From an uncultured Bacteroidota bacterium (GTDB lineage: Bacteria; Bacteroidota; Bacteroidia; Chitinophagales; Chitinophagaceae): a stretch of 33,656 bases of DNA. Of the stretch, positions 9,582 through 31,853 are shown one piece after another; position 1 is the stretch's first letter; every line of letters begins with the position of its first letter. The DNA is taken from positions 1-33,656 of the forward strand of contig CAIWBA010000180.1 in NCBI GenBank assembly GCA_903910765.1, read 5' to 3'. The translations under genes were made by a program, and so were the position numbers. Below the pieces are notes generated by a model. It was not told the origin of the DNA. It did no database searches and worked only from the letters and a program-made list of their open reading frames with translations.

Positions 9582-9622
9582 AAAAAAAGATCCGCCCCGA
9601 TTATCGGGGCGGATCTTTTTTT
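9582..9622. terminator. Strong bidirectional intrinsic terminator
   Basis: Arms 9582-9601 and 9603-9622 are perfectly complementary over 20 bp around a minimal loop: an A-run, then GATCCGCCCCGAT paired with ATCGGGGCGGATC, then a T-run. It has the same form on both strands, as expected between the convergent M16 operon (+) and the FadL-like gene (-). The CCCCGAT/ATCGGGG core recurs in the terminator at 21343. Confidence 0.92.
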
Positions 9623-17190: not shown

Positions 17191-17913
17191 ATGAATAATA
17201 ATGAGCTCAAATATATCCAATCTTTTGCCCATAAAAAACATTGGGACCAAGAATCTGTATTTATTGTAGAAGGACCAAAATTAGTGAAGGAGTTATTGGA
17301 AAGTAATTGGACCATTGAAAAAATATATGCAAGTTCTGAGTGGCTAAAAGCACAGGAACCAATAGGCGTGCCTACGGAGGTGGTGGATGAAATTATATTA
17401 GAACGTATCAGCCAATTCAAAACCGCCAATCAGGTACTTGCATTGGTAAAGAAAAAAGTCGCCAATACGCCACTTCAATTTGACAAGGAATTCACCCTAG
17501 TTTTAGATGGTATTCAAGATCCTGGAAATTTTGGCGCGATTATTAGAACAGCAGATTGGTTTGGCGTTAAGCAAATCATGGTGTCTGAGGATAATGCAGG
17601 TTTATACAATCCAAAAGTCATACAGAGTACCATGGGTAGTTTTTTGAGGGTCCAGGTGTCGCAATGTAATCTAGAAGCGGTATTGTCTAATAGTAAGTTA
17701 CCTATATATGGCGCTGTTTTATCAGGTGCGCCGCTAACAAGAACAAAAATGCAGGCCCCTTGTTTTTTAGTCATTGGAAATGAATCAAAAGGAATACGAA
17801 CAAATTTACTACCCTATATTTCACATCCAGTGACTATTCCAAGTTTTGGCGCAGCGGAATCATTAAATGCTGCGGTGGCTACCGGTATTTTATTGTCTAG
17901 TTGGCGGGCTTAA
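17191..17913 (+). CDS. TrmH/SpoU-family RNA 2'-O-methyltransferase
   Basis: A 240-residue SPOUT methyltransferase using S-adenosylmethionine to methylate a ribose 2'-OH in rRNA or tRNA; the exact target cannot be read. An N-terminal substrate-binding domain (FAHKKHWDQESVFIVEGPKL) is followed by the SPOUT knot with the three family motifs: LDGIQDPGNFGAIIRTADWF, FLVIGNESKGIR and IPSFGAAESLNAAVATGILL. It starts 7 bp from the divergent tamL ATG, so each gene's promoter must lie in the other gene or very close to it. At the 3' end its TAA (17911-17913) overlaps the stop codon of the convergent permease gene. Confidence 0.92.
   Translation: MNNNELKYIQSFAHKKHWDQESVFIVEGPKLVKELLESNWTIEKIYASSEWLKAQEPIGVPTEVVDEIILERISQFKTANQVLALVKKKVANTPLQFDKEFTLVLDGIQDPGNFGAIIRTADWFGVKQIMVSEDNAGLYNPKVIQSTMGSFLRVQVSQCNLEAVLSNSKLPIYGAVLSGAPLTRTKMQAPCFLVIGNESKGIRTNLLPYISHPVTIPSFGAAESLNAAVATGILLSSWRA
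17208..17215 (-). promoter_or_regulatory. -7 promoter box of tamL, inside the trmH-like gene
   Basis: The minus strand reads TATATTTG, an exact TAnnTTTG match, placed 25 bases before the tamL ATG at 17183 and within codons 6-9 of the divergent methyltransferase gene. Its position supports the short tamL start. Confidence 0.45.
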
Positions 17914-19103
17914 TCAAATCGAATTGCTGCTGCTGGTGAAATCCTTTTTATCCAAAGTGTAGGCAGTAAAAAAGAAATATAACTTATCAAAGCGGTTCCA
18001 AATAGTAGTATTACAATTTGAGATGGAACTATTTTTATGGGCAATGTTTTGATGAAATAGGCGGTTTCATCTAGTTGTATCCAGCCAAAATATTGTTGTA
18101 ATAAGGATAACCCCAATCCTAAAATACTTCCTAAAATAATACCTGACCAGCAAATAATGCTTGCTTGATAAATAAATACTTGTCTAATAAAGCCATTGCT
18201 GGCACCCATGGCAGTAAGCGTGCCAATCATCGAAACCCTTTCTAGCATTAAAATAAACAAACAGGTGATTAAATTCACAATGGCTATAATTAGCATGATG
18301 GTTATCGCCACATTTCGATTAATGGTTTGTACGCCAATCCAGTCAAATATTTGTGGATAGTAATTGGGAATTGTGGTGGAAACCCAGTTGTGGGGTAGTT
18401 GCGCTTGAATGATATCTTTTTGTGCATCAATAAATTCCGCATCCTTTAAGGTTACCGTATATCCATCTACCTCAGTAAAATTATTTCTTAATTGTTGTAA
18501 TGATTTAATATCAATCATTACATATTGCTGATCATAATCCTGCATGCCTGAATGATAAAATCCAACTACTTTGAATTTGCGTTGTTGCACATTAGTGCCG
18601 TTTAAAAAGTATAGTTTAATATTTTCATTCAATGGGATGTTTAATTTTTTTGCAATGCCATCTGAGATAATTATTTCCTTCATTAAGCTATCCTTTGAAG
18701 GTGTTAATTTTTCGCCTTCTACTAAAAATGGAATAGGGTCATTCGCATTTACCCCAAGCGCAACAATCCCTTCGATATCTTGTTTAAAGGAGATAACAGT
18801 AGATTGTGAAACGAAAGGAGTAATGGACTGTATTTTTTGGTTACTTGCTTTTAGTAGGCCATTAACAATGCTATCATTTTTTTGAAGGGGACTTCCATTG
18901 ACTGATTCAATTCGAATATGTCCCCAAAATGAAAATACCTTATTTGAAATACTTTGTTGAAATCCATTGACCAAGGATAAGGTTAAAATAATAGCTGCCA
19001 CACTAATTGCTGTTGCAATGATGGAAAGCTTAACAATAATACTTGTATAGCTTTTCTTTTGATGAAAACTTATTTTTTTTGCAATATCAAAGGCGGTAGA
19101 CAA
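17910..19103 (-). CDS. ABC transporter permease, LolC/LolE-MacB type
   Basis: A 397-residue FtsX/MacB-type permease: one N-terminal membrane segment (SIIATAISVAAIILTLSLV), a large periplasmic domain, and three C-terminal segments (VAITIMLIIAIVNLITCLFI; ASIICWSGIILGSILGLGLS; IVILLFGTALISYISFLLPT). The layout matches the LolC/E proteins that extract lipoproteins from the inner membrane with a LolD ATPase, but no ATPase gene is nearby. I prefer the TTG at 19103 (STAFDIAKKISFHQKKSY) over the TTG at 19121: homologues I recall start close to TAF-IA, and the upstream TTG is part of a -7 promoter box. The stop codon overlaps the end of the convergent methyltransferase gene. Confidence 0.85.
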   Translation of the reverse strand: MSTAFDIAKKISFHQKKSYTSIIVKLSIIATAISVAAIILTLSLVNGFQQSISNKVFSFWGHIRIESVNGSPLQKNDSIVNGLLKASNQKIQSITPFVSQSTVISFKQDIEGIVALGVNANDPIPFLVEGEKLTPSKDSLMKEIIISDGIAKKLNIPLNENIKLYFLNGTNVQQRKFKVVGFYHSGMQDYDQQYVMIDIKSLQQLRNNFTEVDGYTVTLKDAEFIDAQKDIIQAQLPHNWVSTTIPNYYPQIFDWIGVQTINRNVAITIMLIIAIVNLITCLFILMLERVSMIGTLTAMGASNGFIRQVFIYQASIICWSGIILGSILGLGLSLLQQYFGWIQLDETAYFIKTLPIKIVPSQIVILLFGTALISYISFLLPTLWIKRISPAAAIRFD

Positions 19104-19120
19104 GTGGCTAATTTTTACCA

Positions 19121-19165
19121 AATCTAGTTTTTTATTCTTAAAAATAATGAATAAAGAACTAGATT
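19121..19165. promoter_or_regulatory. 45-bp inverted repeat forming a symmetric divergent promoter
   Basis: Arms AATCTAGTTTTTTATTC (19121-19137) and GAATAAAGAACTAGATT (19149-19165) are complementary over 17 positions with one G-T type mismatch, around an 11-base spacer. On the minus strand the outer arm creates TAGATTTG (19126-19119), an exact -7 box for the permease gene. On the plus strand the mirror position reads TAGATTCG (19160-19167), one mismatch from consensus, for the T9SS plug gene. It may be a shared operator or simply paired promoters. Confidence 0.55.
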
Positions 19166-19190
19166 CGTGTTAGACAAAATGAATTCATTC

Positions 19191-20465
19191 ATGAGTAAGC
19201 AATTGCTTATTTTATTGGGGTTTTTGATAGGGTTGCAAGCCAATGCGGCAATTGTAATCAACCCTGATAAAGTGTATGATAGCAGTATCAAAACCATTCG
19301 GGTACATCCTATGGGCAATGCCCTTGCCATACCAGTTATTTCATTAACTGAGATGAATCCACTTGAAATTAGCTTTGATGATTTAAAGGCCAAGTATCAG
19401 AATTATTATTATTCTGTAGAATTGATGAATGCCGATTGGCGTTCGGCCAATTTAAGTCCATTTGATTATTTACAGGGGTTTAATCAAAATAGGATAACGC
19501 AATATTCAATATCTTCAATAGCAATCCAATCTTATTATCATTATAAGTTTACTTTTCCCAACACAAATTGTCGTCCAACAAAATCAGGAAATTACATCAT
19601 CAAAGTGTATAAGGATGCAAATCCACAACAAGTTATTTTTACGCGCCGATTTTTTGTTGTAGATGATCAAGTTTCAATTTTATCTTCTATTCAAGAGCCC
19701 TTTGATGGCAATATTTCAAAAACGCATCAAAAAGTACAATTGTCTGTAGAAACAAAAAAACTTTCTTTTTTTCAGCCAGATCAAATACAAGTTCATGTCA
19801 TTCAAAATTATCGTTATAATGATGCGCTTCTTATAAGCACCCCAAGTTTTGTTAGAGGAAGTATGCTTGAATATAACAGCGAAAGAGATTTGATTTTTCC
19901 ATCAGGAAAGGAATCAAGATGGCTTGACTTACAAAGCTTTCGTTTAAAGTCGGATCGGATTGTCAATTTTGATGCGACCTCGAATGGTACCATTGTTAAT
20001 GTGAAGCCGGACTTTTCAAGAGCAACGACTCCTTATTTTAATTTCAAAGATTTAAATGGTCAATTCTTAATTTCAAATTCAGAGTCCATAGATAGCGAAA
20101 ACCAAAATGATTATGCGACCATCGTATTTACGTATGTTCCGCCTAATGGATTGCCATTATTGGGAGAAAATTTATATTTATCGGGGGAGCTTACCAACAA
20201 TGTTTTAGATGCAGCTGCAGAGATGAAATTTAATCCTGTTACAAGGGTTTACCAAAAAACATTGTTACTAAAACAAGGATACTATAGTTATTCCTACATT
20301 TTAAGGGATAAGGATAAACCAGATCCGATGCTTGATTTTAACGAAACAGAAGGGGATCATTGGGAAACTGAAAATGCCTATTCCATTTTTATTTATTATC
20401 GTCCCCCAGGTGCCAGACATGACCATTTAATTGGCTTTACAACGGTACATTCCAATCAATATTAG
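19191..20465 (+). CDS. Type IX secretion system plug protein (DUF5103 family)
   Basis: A 424-residue exported protein with signal peptide MSKQLLILLGFLIGLQANA, matching the DUF5103/T9SS plug family. In Flavobacterium johnsoniae the Plug protein closes the periplasmic end of the SprA translocon channel. Family features visible are NPLEISFDDLKAKYQNYYYS, NADWRSANLSPFDYLQGFNQ, YYHYKFTFPN, the RFFVVDDQVSI segment, and a second half with YATIVFTYVPPNGLPLLGEN, YLSGELTN, a YSYSYILRD strand and a C-terminal IFIYYRPPGARHDHLIGF. The ATG at 19191 gives the best signal peptide; the ATG at 19179 and GTG at 19167 in the same frame are less suitable. It implies the organism has a type IX secretion system, though no other T9SS gene is in the window. 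Confidence 0.85.
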   Translation: MSKQLLILLGFLIGLQANAAIVINPDKVYDSSIKTIRVHPMGNALAIPVISLTEMNPLEISFDDLKAKYQNYYYSVELMNADWRSANLSPFDYLQGFNQNRITQYSISSIAIQSYYHYKFTFPNTNCRPTKSGNYIIKVYKDANPQQVIFTRRFFVVDDQVSILSSIQEPFDGNISKTHQKVQLSVETKKLSFFQPDQIQVHVIQNYRYNDALLISTPSFVRGSMLEYNSERDLIFPSGKESRWLDLQSFRLKSDRIVNFDATSNGTIVNVKPDFSRATTPYFNFKDLNGQFLISNSESIDSENQNDYATIVFTYVPPNGLPLLGENLYLSGELTNNVLDAAAEMKFNPVTRVYQKTLLLKQGYYSYSYILRDKDKPDPMLDFNETEGDHWETENAYSIFIYYRPPGARHDHLIGFTTVHSNQY

Positions 20466-20504
20466 GTAGTTATAGGTGTACTTTTTTAATCAATTCATTT
20501 GTCC

Positions 20505-20512
20505 TACATTTG
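20505..20512 (+). promoter_or_regulatory. -7 promoter box of the SRP RNA gene
   Basis: TACATTTG matches TAnnTTTG exactly and ends four bases before the predicted RNA 5' end (GGCAGG at 20517). The spacing suits an RNA whose 5' end is the transcription start. Confidence 0.6.
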
Positions 20513-20516
20513 CACC

Positions 20517-20610
20517 GGCAGGTCTTACACGACCAGCTCCTGCTGAACTTCCCCAGGGTAGGAATACAGCAAGGATAGGCGGTTGAGCGGTGTGATGTGA
20601 GTAGCCTGCC
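20517..20610 (+). ncRNA. ffs: Small bacterial signal recognition particle RNA (4.5S)
   Basis: A 94-base RNA with complementary ends GGCAGG (20517-20522) and CCTGCC (20605-20610). The SRP apical domain follows the expected order: CTTACACGACCAGCTCCTGC, then the CCCAGGGTAGGAA asymmetric-loop/GGAA-tetraloop region and ACAGCAAGGATAGGCGG returning along the helix. The GGAA-type tetraloop and AGCA loop bind the Ffh M-domain. A short T-run (20613-20617) follows and may end transcription. The reading frame that crosses this region on the plus strand is only an upstream extension of the transaldolase frame and is not coding here. Confidence 0.93.
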
Positions 20611-20650
20611 ACTTTTTAACTTTTGGGAAACCAAATTAAATAAATCAAAT

Positions 20651-29704: not shown

Positions 29705-30505
29705 TTAATCAATTATACGCTCGGCATTACTCATATTGGTCATGCCATTTTTTTGTAAAATTTCTTTGGCTAGGTTTAAATAATTTACAGTGCCTTTACT
29801 TTCAGCATCATACAAAATAACAGGTTTGCCTACGCTTGGGGCTTCACTTAATCTTGTATTGCGATGAATAATGGTTGAAAATACCATTTCATCAAAATGC
29901 TTACGTACTTCACTGACTACTTGGTTACTTAATCTTAAACGTCCATCATACATCGTCATTAAAATTCCTTCAATTTGTAATTCAGGATTTAATCTGCTTT
30001 GAACAATTTTGATGGTATTTAAAAGTTTTCCTAATCCTTCTAATGCAAAAAATTCGCATTGAACAGGAACAATCACACTATCGGAAGCGACTAACGCATT
30101 TACCGTAATTAATCCCAAAGAGGGTAAACAATCAATAATGATGAAATCATATTGGTCATTAATTTCATTGATCAAGCCTTTTAAAACATTTTCTCTATTC
30201 GGCAAGTTGACTAATTCAATTTCAGCACCCACTAAATCAATATGAGAAGGTATTAAATCCAAATGAGGTATTTCAGTTTTTAATACAATGTCCTTTAATG
30301 GGGTATTGTTAATCATGCCATCATATAAGCTGGTCGTGATATTATGCAAATCAAAGCCAACCCCCGTAGTGCTGTTTGCCTGTGGGTCAGCGTCAATTAA
30401 CAGTGTTCTGTATTCCAAAACTGCCAAGCTAGCTGCAATGTTAATGGCTGAGGTTGTTTTACCTACCCCTCCTTTTTGATTTGCAATTCCTATGATTCGA
30501 GCCAT
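29705..30505 (-). CDS. parA: Chromosome-partitioning ATPase ParA (Soj)
   Basis: A 266-residue deviant Walker ATPase that positions chromosome origins together with Par[18 protein letters not shown] (residues 8-24) is the deviant Walker A motif with the signature first lysine. [14 protein letters not shown] carries the A' motif, and [14 protein letters not shown] the Walker B region. The open frame begins nine codons further upstream (30532), but I chose the ATG at 30505 ([13 protein letters not shown]), which is the family's normal start and sits about 25 bases from the promoter box at 30530-30537; the longer start would lie inside that box. parB follows immediately. Confidence 0.95.
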
Positions 30506-30529
30506 ATAATAGTTATCCTTAATTTCAAT

Positions 30530-30537
30530 CAAAAATA
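30530..30537 (-). promoter_or_regulatory. -7 promoter box of the parA operon
   Basis: The minus strand reads TATTTTTG, an exact TAnnTTTG match 25 bases upstream of the parA ATG at 30505. It would drive parA-parB-DUF5683-dapB. Confidence 0.5.
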
Positions 30538-30617
30538 AGGCATAAATGGTAACTTTTTGGGATTAAATATGTTATAAATGGGGCATTATGGCCTAATTTT
30601 ACCCATTAATTTATTCT

Positions 30618-31853
30618 ATGAGGAATCCTGTTTTTATTTTTGTTCTGTTATCAGTATTAATTCTGGTTGATTTCTATATTTTTTATGTTTTGAGGACCGT
30701 TTTTCAGGGCTTTTCGATGACGGCCAAAACAACTGCAGGGATATTTTATTGGGCTTTGTGTATGCTTAGTTTGGGGTCCTTTTTGCTTTTCCCCTATATC
30801 ACCAATCCTTATTTCAAGCAATATTTTTTTTCAATCGGGGTGGGTTGGGTACTGACGCAGTTTTTCATGGTCACTTTTTTTGTGGTAGATGATTTAAGAA
30901 GAGGCGCATTTTGGACCATCGGACAAATTTCTTCAGCGGCGGGTGCAAAATTCATGAACACGGAGAATGGTATTCCGCGTTCTACTTTTTTAAGTTGGCT
31001 GGGTGTTGGTCTGTCATCTACTTTATTTTTTTCTTTGTTGTATGGATTTGGTAATAAGTACAATTATAAGTTGATTAAAAAAAAGGTAGTGATTCCTAAT
31101 TTGCCCATCGCATTTAAAGGATTTAAAATAATTCATATCAGTGATATTCATAGTGGTAGTTTAAAGGAAATAGCGGCAGTAAAAAAGGGGGTGCAAATGA
31201 TACAAAATCAACAACCGGACCTTGTATTATTTACGGGCGACTTAGTGAATGATCGCGCCGATGAAATGGGACCTTGGATGCCTGTTTTTAGTGAAATTAA
31301 TGCACCGCATGGTGTTTTTAGCACCCTAGGAAACCATGATTATGGAGATTATGTGAAATGGGATAGTCAAGAAGCTAAAATTCAAAATTTGGAAGCGCTA
31401 AAAAAAGTACATGCAAATATGGGTTGGCGCTTGTTGATGAATGAAAATGTAAAAATTGAAAAGGCAGGGTCATTTTTGCAGTTAGTCGGCATTGAAAATT
31501 GGGGTGCAAAAGCAAGATTTCCTAAATATGGCAAAATGGAATTGGCAATGCAAGGCGTGAAAGCTGAGTTGCCCATCATTTTAATGAGCCATGATCCAAG
31601 CCATTGGGAAGCAGAAGTGATTCCAAAATATCCACAAATCAATTTAACCTTATCGGGTCATACACATGGTATGCAATTTGGTTTGGAAAATCCCTATTTT
31701 AAATGGAGCCCTGTGCAATGGGTGTATAAGCAGTGGGCAGGATTATATCAAACGGAGCAACAGCAATTATATGTCAATAGGGGATTTGGATTTTTAGGAT
31801 ACCCTGGTCGCGTGGGTATAATGCCTGAGATAACTTTGTTAGAATTGATGTAA
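30618..31853 (+). CDS. Membrane-anchored calcineurin-like metallophosphoesterase
   Basis: A 411-residue protein with a membrane N-terminus and a YkuE/YaeI-like phosphoesterase domain. About four hydrophobic segments precede residue 145 (VFIFVLLSVLILVDFYIFYV; IFYWALCMLSLGSFLLF; FSIGVGWVLTQFFMVTFFVV; LGVGLSSTLFFSLLYGF). The metal-binding motifs are complete: HISDIHSGS (Asp176, His178), FTGDLVNDRAD, LGNHDYGDY (238-241), MSHDPSHW and SGHTHGMQFG (347-350). The domain probably faces the cytoplasm or periplasm and hydrolyses a phosphoester; YaeI-type relatives act on lipid precursors, but the substrate here is unknown. It is divergent from parA across 112 bp, and the region just before the ATG has a weak promoter match (TAATTTTA). 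Confidence 0.9.
   Translation: MRNPVFIFVLLSVLILVDFYIFYVLRTVFQGFSMTAKTTAGIFYWALCMLSLGSFLLFPYITNPYFKQYFFSIGVGWVLTQFFMVTFFVVDDLRRGAFWTIGQISSAAGAKFMNTENGIPRSTFLSWLGVGLSSTLFFSLLYGFGNKYNYKLIKKKVVIPNLPIAFKGFKIIHISDIHSGSLKEIAAVKKGVQMIQNQQPDLVLFTGDLVNDRADEMGPWMPVFSEINAPHGVFSTLGNHDYGDYVKWDSQEAKIQNLEALKKVHANMGWRLLMNENVKIEKAGSFLQLVGIENWGAKARFPKYGKMELAMQGVKAELPIILMSHDPSHWEAEVIPKYPQINLTLSGHTHGMQFGLENPYFKWSPVQWVYKQWAGLYQTEQQQLYVNRGFGFLGYPGRVGIMPEITLLELM

What the first reader, a model, noticed from the sequence alone, without database searches (positions are those of the whole stretch)
19121..19165. Symmetric palindromic promoter between a LolC/E-like permease and the T9SS plug gene
The two 17-base arms match with a single G-T type difference, and each outer arm carries a -7-like box (TAGATTTG leftward, exact; TAGATTCG rightward, one mismatch). 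A palindrome that is itself two back-to-back promoters ties expression of a lipoprotein-export permease to a type IX secretion component. It could bind a dimeric regulator that controls both. It also decides the permease start codon, because the upstream TTG is part of the box.
Basis: partly seen in the sequence, partly recalled or inferred. Interest (0 to 1): 0.5.

Follow-up and report, generated by a model that had tools for sequence, protein, structure and literature searches.

The report
Back-to-back promoters, not an operator
Between two oppositely facing genes of a freshwater bacterium lie two outward-facing promoter-like boxes that its relatives share, whereas the eye-catching palindrome around them occurs only in its few closest relatives and is probably not a regulator's docking site.

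Summary
The palindrome is real: arms 19121-19137 and 19149-19165, 16 of 17 matched, 11-nt loop. So are the two outward -7-like boxes (TAGATTTG 19126-19119 on -, TAGATTCG 19160-19167 on +).

Relatives (Sediminibacterium-type freshwater Chitinophagaceae) separate the two. The box pair is conserved: 48 of 49 near-clade loci carry both boxes 32-34 nt apart (33 in 40). The palindrome is not: 6 of those 48 have at least 15 of 17 arm matches, the other 42 have 7-12. Arms of one species match no better than arms from different species (10.45 versus 10.55 of 19). The arm does not recur in the genome as an operator would. Outward box pairs are common in divergent spacers here: 36 of 90, about 3 in composition shuffles.

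Best reading: two overlapping sigma-A-type promoters, back to back, driving a LolC/E/F-like permease and the type IX secretion plug gene. The palindrome arose in one small lineage because both promoters share a -7 box and an A-rich tract. The start-codon remark holds: the permease most likely starts at conserved TTG 19103. Shared expression is untested. Ordinary; interest low.

The parts
19119..19167 (.). 49-bp divergent promoter element, outer edge of one -7 box to outer edge of the other
   Evidence: Identical in the window, G004, G016, G026 and L075, one change in L076, while third codon positions of the flanking genes differ by 27-31%; box spacing 32-34 nt in the 48 near-clade loci that have both boxes
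19119..19126 (-). Leftward -7-like box TAGATTTG (permease promoter); predicted start of transcription about 19114 (inferred)
   Evidence: TAGNTTTG in 47 of 48 near and 29 of 35 far loci, 14-24 nt before the permease TTG
19160..19167 (+). Rightward -7-like box TAGATTCG (plug promoter); predicted start of transcription about 19172 (inferred)
   Evidence: TAGWTTCG is the only TANNTTYG within 75 nt of the left box in 48 of 48 near-clade loci; the TTCG ending also occurs in the SRP RNA promoter of relatives (TACCTTCG, 6 of 29 loci)
19121..19137 (.). Left palindrome arm: most of the left box plus T-rich tract (A-rich on the permease strand)
   Evidence: box and T-tract largely conserved through the near clade, inner end not
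19138..19148 (.). 11-nt loop
19149..19165 (.). Right palindrome arm: A-rich tract plus most of the right box
   Evidence: arm match of 16 of 17 only in L002, L074, L075, L077, L078 and 15 of 17 in L076, among 48 near-clade loci
17910..19103 (-). LolC/E/F-like ABC permease gene (MacB_PCD + FtsX domains), probable start codon TTG at 19103-19101
   Evidence: in-frame TTG within a codon of this position in 80 of 84 loci, position checked
19191..20465 (+). Type IX secretion plug gene, probable start codon ATG at 19191 (MSKQLLIL...) rather than ATG 19179 or GTG 19167
   Evidence: NF052315 379.7 bits over cut-off 100, PDB 6h3j chain C 'Plug'; two relatives (L077, which is G026, and L076) have an in-frame TAA just after the first ATG; position checked

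Best explanation
The spacer holds two overlapping sigma-A-type (Bacteroidota) promoters placed back to back. Each has a -7-like box (TAGATTTG leftward, TAGATTCG rightward) preceded by an A-rich tract, and each gives a short leader (about 11 nt to the permease TTG, about 19 nt to the plug ATG, if transcription starts 4-5 nt after the box). The permease and the plug gene are transcribed outward from them. The palindrome is not itself the functional unit: it appears because both promoters are the same kind of module, and in one small lineage a few substitutions made the two modules nearly identical. Shown: boxes, spacing, conservation, gene identities, lack of arm conservation. Inferred: that the boxes are used, the start sites, sigma-A as the factor, and that two polymerases with start sites about 58 bp apart hinder each other.
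For: Both boxes in 48 of 49 near-clade loci at a spacing of 33 nt (40), 32 (5) or 34 (3). Left box TAGNTTTG in 76 of 83 loci of near and far clades, 14-24 nt before the TTG start. Arms do not co-vary: within-species match 10.45 of 19, cross-species 10.55; outside the boxes 4.10 versus 4.22 of 11. The SRP RNA just downstream gives an independent yardstick: its promoter reads TACATTTG, and TACCTTCG in 6 of 29 loci, so the TTCG form is probably used in this genus; TA[ACT].TTCG is also commoner on the sense strand upstream of genes (22 against 10 over three samples). Outward box pairs occur in 36 of 90 divergent spacers, against shuffle means of 0.8, 1.0 and 0.8. In G014, where the plug gene is missing, the left box and T-tract persist without the right arm.
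Against: No transcription start data. Both boxes have G at the third position, which F. johnsoniae promoters avoid (PMC6847099, passages) and which is not enriched upstream of genes here (TAG.TTTR 28 sense, 38 antisense; TAG.TTCG 6 and 5; TAHHTTTR 286 and 204). No TTG or TTTG -33 element is visible in the spacer. Within the small lineage the whole 49 bp, arms included, is unchanged in five genomes, and the window's left arm fits its own right arm better than all left arms but the L076 one.
Confidence: 0.85

Rival explanations
1. The palindrome is an operator: a dimeric regulator binds both arms and controls both genes.
For: 16 of 17 symmetry is unlikely from shuffling the middle (45 of 200,000). 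The 49 bp is unchanged in five genomes whose third codon positions differ from the window's by 27-31%. The four differences from the next lineage (L079/L080) all sit at positions that are symmetric in the window and not in L079; two of them look derived, by eye.
Against: Arms are lost outside six genomes although genes, order and boxes stay; no coupling of arms across 31 distinct spacers; the arm with up to 3 mismatches has 66 hits in the genome, its own two arms included, against 107 for the reversed control, and the three best other hits all lie inside open frames of 551 aa or more. Other stretches are just as unchanged against G004, among them 30483-30646, which covers another divergent spacer.
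Confidence: 0.07
2. A single bidirectional control element: the fixed 32-34 nt spacing makes polymerase binding in the two directions mutually exclusive, so the two promoters compete and balance permease against plug. This is an addition to the best explanation rather than an alternative to it.
For: Box spacing held within one base of 33 in 48 loci while the stretch from left box to TTG varies from 14 to 22 nt in the near clade; predicted start sites about 58 bp apart would make polymerase footprints overlap (inference); competition is documented at E. coli bidirectional promoters (PMC12825309, abstract and passages).
Against: Fixed spacing also follows from each promoter's own upstream elements lying in the shared middle. 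In far relatives the plug side carries other box forms at other distances (read by eye). No expression data.
Confidence: 0.25
3. The plug-side box is an ECF sigma site (CGT-type), part of a type IX secretion regulon as seen in F. psychrophilum motif SM6.
For: The right box is followed by T in 48 of 48 near-clade loci, so TTCGT is invariant there, and SM6 with its CGT box lies upstream of gldN and porU in F. psychrophilum (PMC9723704, section 15).
Against: No TAG-type box in 25 upstream regions of sprA, porU and gldK from 10 genomes; a weak test, since starts were chosen mechanically, one region was 4 nt and one 59 nt long, and sprA follows closely behind another gene. TAG-type boxes also stand before unrelated genes (names by eye). 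No ECF-like -35 element was seen by eye at the usual distance.
Confidence: 0.06

Closest known systems
Sigma-A (sigma-ABfr) promoters of Bacteroidota, -7 box TAnnTTTG
   Same: TA and TTTG (left) or TTCG (right) at a fitting distance from the start codons; AT-rich stretch upstream as reported for F. johnsoniae (PMC6847099, passages)
   Different: G at the third position of both boxes, C for T in the right box, no visible -33 TTTG
Prokaryotic bidirectional promoters (E. coli, PMC12825309, abstract and passages)
   Same: Pseudo-symmetric DNA driving divergent mRNAs; simultaneous polymerase binding probably hindered (inference here)
   Different: Predicted start sites about 58 bp apart instead of 10, 18 or 23 bp; no shared -10 element
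Palindromic operators of dimeric regulators in divergent spacers (general knowledge, recalled)
   Same: Inverted repeat between divergent genes
   Different: Arms not conserved, not recurrent, and coincident with the promoter boxes

Membership tests
Sigma-A type Bacteroidota promoter | -7 box TAnnTTTG | tested here: met
   Left box TAGATTTG exact; right box TAGATTCG has one change, a form also found at the SRP RNA promoter of 6 of 29 loci
Sigma-A type Bacteroidota promoter | No G at the two middle positions (TAHHTTTG, F. johnsoniae) | tested here: not met
   G at the third position in both boxes and in all 76 left boxes found; rule from PMC6847099 passages, may not hold in this family
Sigma-A type Bacteroidota promoter | -33 element TTTG or TTG | tested here: not met
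   None upstream of either box within the 49 bp, read by eye; reported as much less evident even in F. johnsoniae
Sigma-A type Bacteroidota promoter | Transcription starts 4-5 nt after the box | not testable with these tools
   No RNA data held
Dimeric-regulator operator | Both arms conserved in relatives with the same gene order | tested here: not met
   At least 15 of 17 matched in 6 of 48 near-clade loci, 7-12 of 17 in the other 42
Dimeric-regulator operator | Arms change together | tested here: not met
   Within-species 10.45, cross-species 10.55 of 19, permutation fraction 0.74 over 31 distinct spacers
Dimeric-regulator operator | Site recurs in the genome | tested here: not met
   66 hits, own arms included, against 107 for the reversed control, up to 3 mismatches; a single-target regulator would not need to recur
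E. coli-type bidirectional promoter | Divergent start sites about 10, 18 or 23 bp apart | tested here: inconclusive
   About 58 bp predicted from box positions, but the real starts are unknown
Type IX secretion plug protein (NF052315) | Score over the curated cut-off | tested here: met
   379.7 bits, cut-off 100; PF17116 142.4 bits, cut-off 23.9
LolC/LolE permease (TIGR02212) | Score over the curated cut-off | tested here: not met
   171.9 bits, cut-off 362.45; nearest solved chains by sequence are LolF, E 5e-25: LolC/E/F-like only

The most novel reading that the evidence does not exclude
The pair of TAG-type boxes at a fixed 32-34 nt spacing is a deliberate bidirectional control unit: polymerase binding one way excludes the other, so lipoprotein-export permease and type IX secretion plug are held in a set ratio. 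In one lineage the near-perfect symmetry would balance the two directions most evenly. It would be a Bacteroidota version of the bidirectional promoter with widely separated start sites.
Probability: 0.12. Interest if true: 0.4.

Novelty: new member of a known kind. Interest (0 to 1): 0.15.

Why it matters
Mainly as a caution and a calibration. A striking palindrome in a divergent spacer can be two copies of the same promoter module rather than a regulator site, and a few dozen related spacers are enough to tell. The nearby SRP RNA promoter indicates which -7 variants (TTTG and TTCG) this genus uses. If competition between the two promoters were shown, it would link envelope lipoprotein export to type IX secretion in a simple way.

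Tried and rejected
Operator reading: rejected on arm conservation, lack of coupling and lack of recurrence.

Type IX secretion regulon sharing the box: looked upstream of sprA, porU and gldK in 10 genomes; 0 of 25 upstream regions hold a TAG-type box. Five of the 30 listed loci were left out because the gene is cut by a contig end: sprA of G000 and G004, porU of G000, G006 and G025. Starts were chosen mechanically.

TAG-type box as a special class: at first its G looked unusual. Outside this locus, 15 sense-strand TAG.TTYG sites lie in free upstream regions of three samples (5 of 6 in G000, 6 of 11 in G009/G034/G015, 4 of 5 in G017; the rest are this locus). Two of these genes (a YigZ/IMPACT-like one and a small exported-looking one, names by eye) show the box with similar flanking sequence in two genomes each, so I take it as a minority form of the ordinary box.

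Terminator: no terminator-like site in 18900-19400; with starts outside the boxes the palindrome would not be transcribed from them (inference). E. coli-type sigma-70 sites in that stretch: 3 found, 2.4 expected.

Gene pairing beyond the genus: in 0 of 11 order-level loci fetched was the permease found near the plug gene, so no wider spacer comparison was made.

Papers: a search for Sediminibacterium, promoter and transcription start together found none; searches gave listings without a paper on such a promoter in this family among those listed.

Full report
What is there. The window is contig C180 of a 2.5-Mb, incomplete genome. Records of the same genus carry titles such as Sediminibacterium sp. 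and Chitinophagia or Chitinophagaceae bacterium: contig lengths tie G009:C30 to JAGOAO010000002.1 (194,890 bases) and G004:C279 to RFZW01000037.1 (15,675 bases). The finding lies in the spacer between a LolC/E/F-like permease on the - strand (MacB_PCD and FtsX domains; lolCE model 171.9 bits, below its cut-off of 362.45; LolF chains in the PDB at 5e-25) and the type IX secretion plug gene on the + strand (NF052315, 379.7 bits over 100; PDB 6h3j chain C).

Observation. The palindrome 19121-19137 / 19149-19165 is confirmed with 16 of 17 matches and an 11-nt loop. The outer boxes are TAGATTTG (19126-19119, - strand) and TAGATTCG (19160-19167, + strand). With boxes fixed, 45 of 200,000 shuffles of the middle reach the symmetry. 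In 413 kb of this genome there are 9 inverted repeats of this quality, against 0, 1 and 0 in shuffled copies, and 2 of the 9, this one included, lie in free upstream regions.

Comparison across the genus. The plug gene was found in 44 of 60 genomes searched, own genome included. In 30 of 30 loci the permease lies divergently beside it. The two sets share genomes. In 11 loci from other families of the order no permease match lies in the 5-6.5 kb fetched. Of 49 near-clade loci (window, L074-L120, L048), 48 hold both boxes, separated by 33 nt in 40, 32 in 5 and 34 in 3. The left box is TAGNTTTG in 47 of 48 near loci and 29 of 35 far loci, 14 to 24 nt before the permease TTG. Of the 7 misses, 4 (L077, L128, L147, L148) had no TTG called, so the box was not sought, and 3 (L133, L153, L060) have no TANNTTTG there. 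The right box is TAGWTTCG in 48 of 48 near loci, always followed by T. In far relatives the plug side carries other forms, such as TAAGTTTA, at other distances (read by eye).

The palindrome does not follow the boxes. In the window's register, 16 of 17 arm positions match in five loci (L002, L074, L075, L077, L078), 15 in L076, and 7-12 in the other 42 of 48. Left and right arms from one species match 10.45 of 19 on average, arms from different species 10.55; outside the boxes 4.10 and 4.22 of 11; permuted pairings reach the observed mean in 74% and 81% of cases. Evidence on the other side: the window's left arm fits its own right arm better than every other left arm but that of L076; the 49-bp element is unchanged in the window, G004, G016, G026 and L075 while third codon positions differ by 27-31%; and the four differences from the L079/L080 lineage all fall where the window is symmetric and L079 is not. 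Such constancy is not special, though: against G004 there are 40 runs of 49 or more identical bases in the stretch compared, this one included, and one of them, 30483-30646, covers another divergent spacer.

No sign of an operator family. The arm pattern with up to 3 mismatches has 66 hits in the genome, its own two arms included, against 107 for the reversed control. The three next-best hits lie in open frames of 636, 1005 and 551 aa.

Are they promoters? Outward TANNTTYR pairs occur in 36 of 90 divergent spacers of 40-140 bp (9 of 23, 18 of 40, 9 of 27) against shuffle means of 0.8, 1.0 and 0.8; the shuffles keep base composition only, gene starts were called mechanically, and this locus is among the 36. 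An independent yardstick stands next door: the small SRP RNA (RF04183, 20509-20615) is preceded by TACATTTG at 20505-20512, and in the 29 of 84 loci where a pattern caught it the box reads TACATTTG 16 times, TACCTTCG 6, TACTTTTG 4 and others 3. TTCG is therefore probably a used form. A third-position G is not found in those 29, is not enriched upstream of genes (TAG.TTTR 28 sense and 38 antisense over three samples, TAG.TTCG 6 and 5, TAHHTTTR 286 and 204), and is reported as almost absent in F. johnsoniae (PMC6847099, passages). Yet TAG-type boxes also stand before unrelated genes, for two of them with similar flanking sequence in two genomes (names by eye), so I read it as a minority form.

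Start codons. The permease start is most likely TTG 19103-19101; an in-frame TTG within a codon of the aligned position is found in 80 of 84 loci (the other four are L077 with a run of N, and by eye L128 and L147, misaligned, and L148 with CTG). For the plug gene, ATG 19191 is the better start than ATG 19179, because L076 and L077 (G026) have an in-frame TAA just after the first ATG.

A natural deletion. G014 (94% complete, 6% contamination) has no plug gene by two searches but has SprA. Its spacer keeps the left box and T-tract and then runs into the SRP RNA promoter. The left promoter thus stands without the right arm there, unless the junction is an assembly error.

Mechanism. Taking a start 4-5 nt after each box (PMC6847099), transcripts would begin near 19114 (leftward) and 19172 (rightward), about 58 bp apart, with leaders of about 11 and 19 nt. 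Two polymerases would probably overlap in the middle (inference). Competition of this kind is described for E. coli bidirectional promoters, whose start sites commonly lie 10, 18 or 23 bp apart (PMC12825309, abstract and passages). The fixed spacing fits competition but also fits two promoters whose upstream elements share the middle.

Verdict. Ordinary divergent sigma-A-type promoters with a lineage-limited palindrome.

Noticed in passing
window 20505-20615: Small SRP RNA gene (RF04183) between plug and a transaldolase-like gene (name by eye), with its own -7 box TACATTTG; the spacer 20466-20620 is nearly unchanged in five relatives (150-155 of 155). It serves as a yardstick for -7 box variants in the genus.
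   Followed up: yes
L048 (G014:C8): A genome with SprA but no plug gene found: the plug gene appears removed, joining the permease promoter to the SRP RNA promoter. Could be gene loss or an assembly error.
   Followed up: partly
window 19101-19103 and 80 of 84 loci: The permease keeps a TTG start codon across the loci compared, which may hold its translation low.
   Followed up: partly
left boxes of 76 loci; sites in G000, G009, G015, G034, G017 stretches: A -7-like box with G at the third position (TAGNTTTG) is invariant at the permease where found and also stands before other genes, though not enriched upstream of genes in general and reported as nearly absent in F. johnsoniae.
   Followed up: partly
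L248-L254, upstream of porU: In 7 of 7 porU upstream regions read (3 more were cut by contig ends) TAATTTTA ends 4 nt before the ATG, after a GTTANNAAAA-like stretch (by eye). In G009 and G004, among others, porU lies divergently beside a GldK-family gene.
   Followed up: no
G000:C16 33212-33267 (in L185): Inverted repeat with arms of 17 (16 matched) and a 22-nt loop upstream of a gene, ATGTGTATATTTTACAC..., which could be a regulator site.
   Followed up: no
window 9582-9622: Perfect 20-bp inverted repeat with 1-nt loop and A/T runs at both ends, perhaps a two-way terminator.
   Followed up: no
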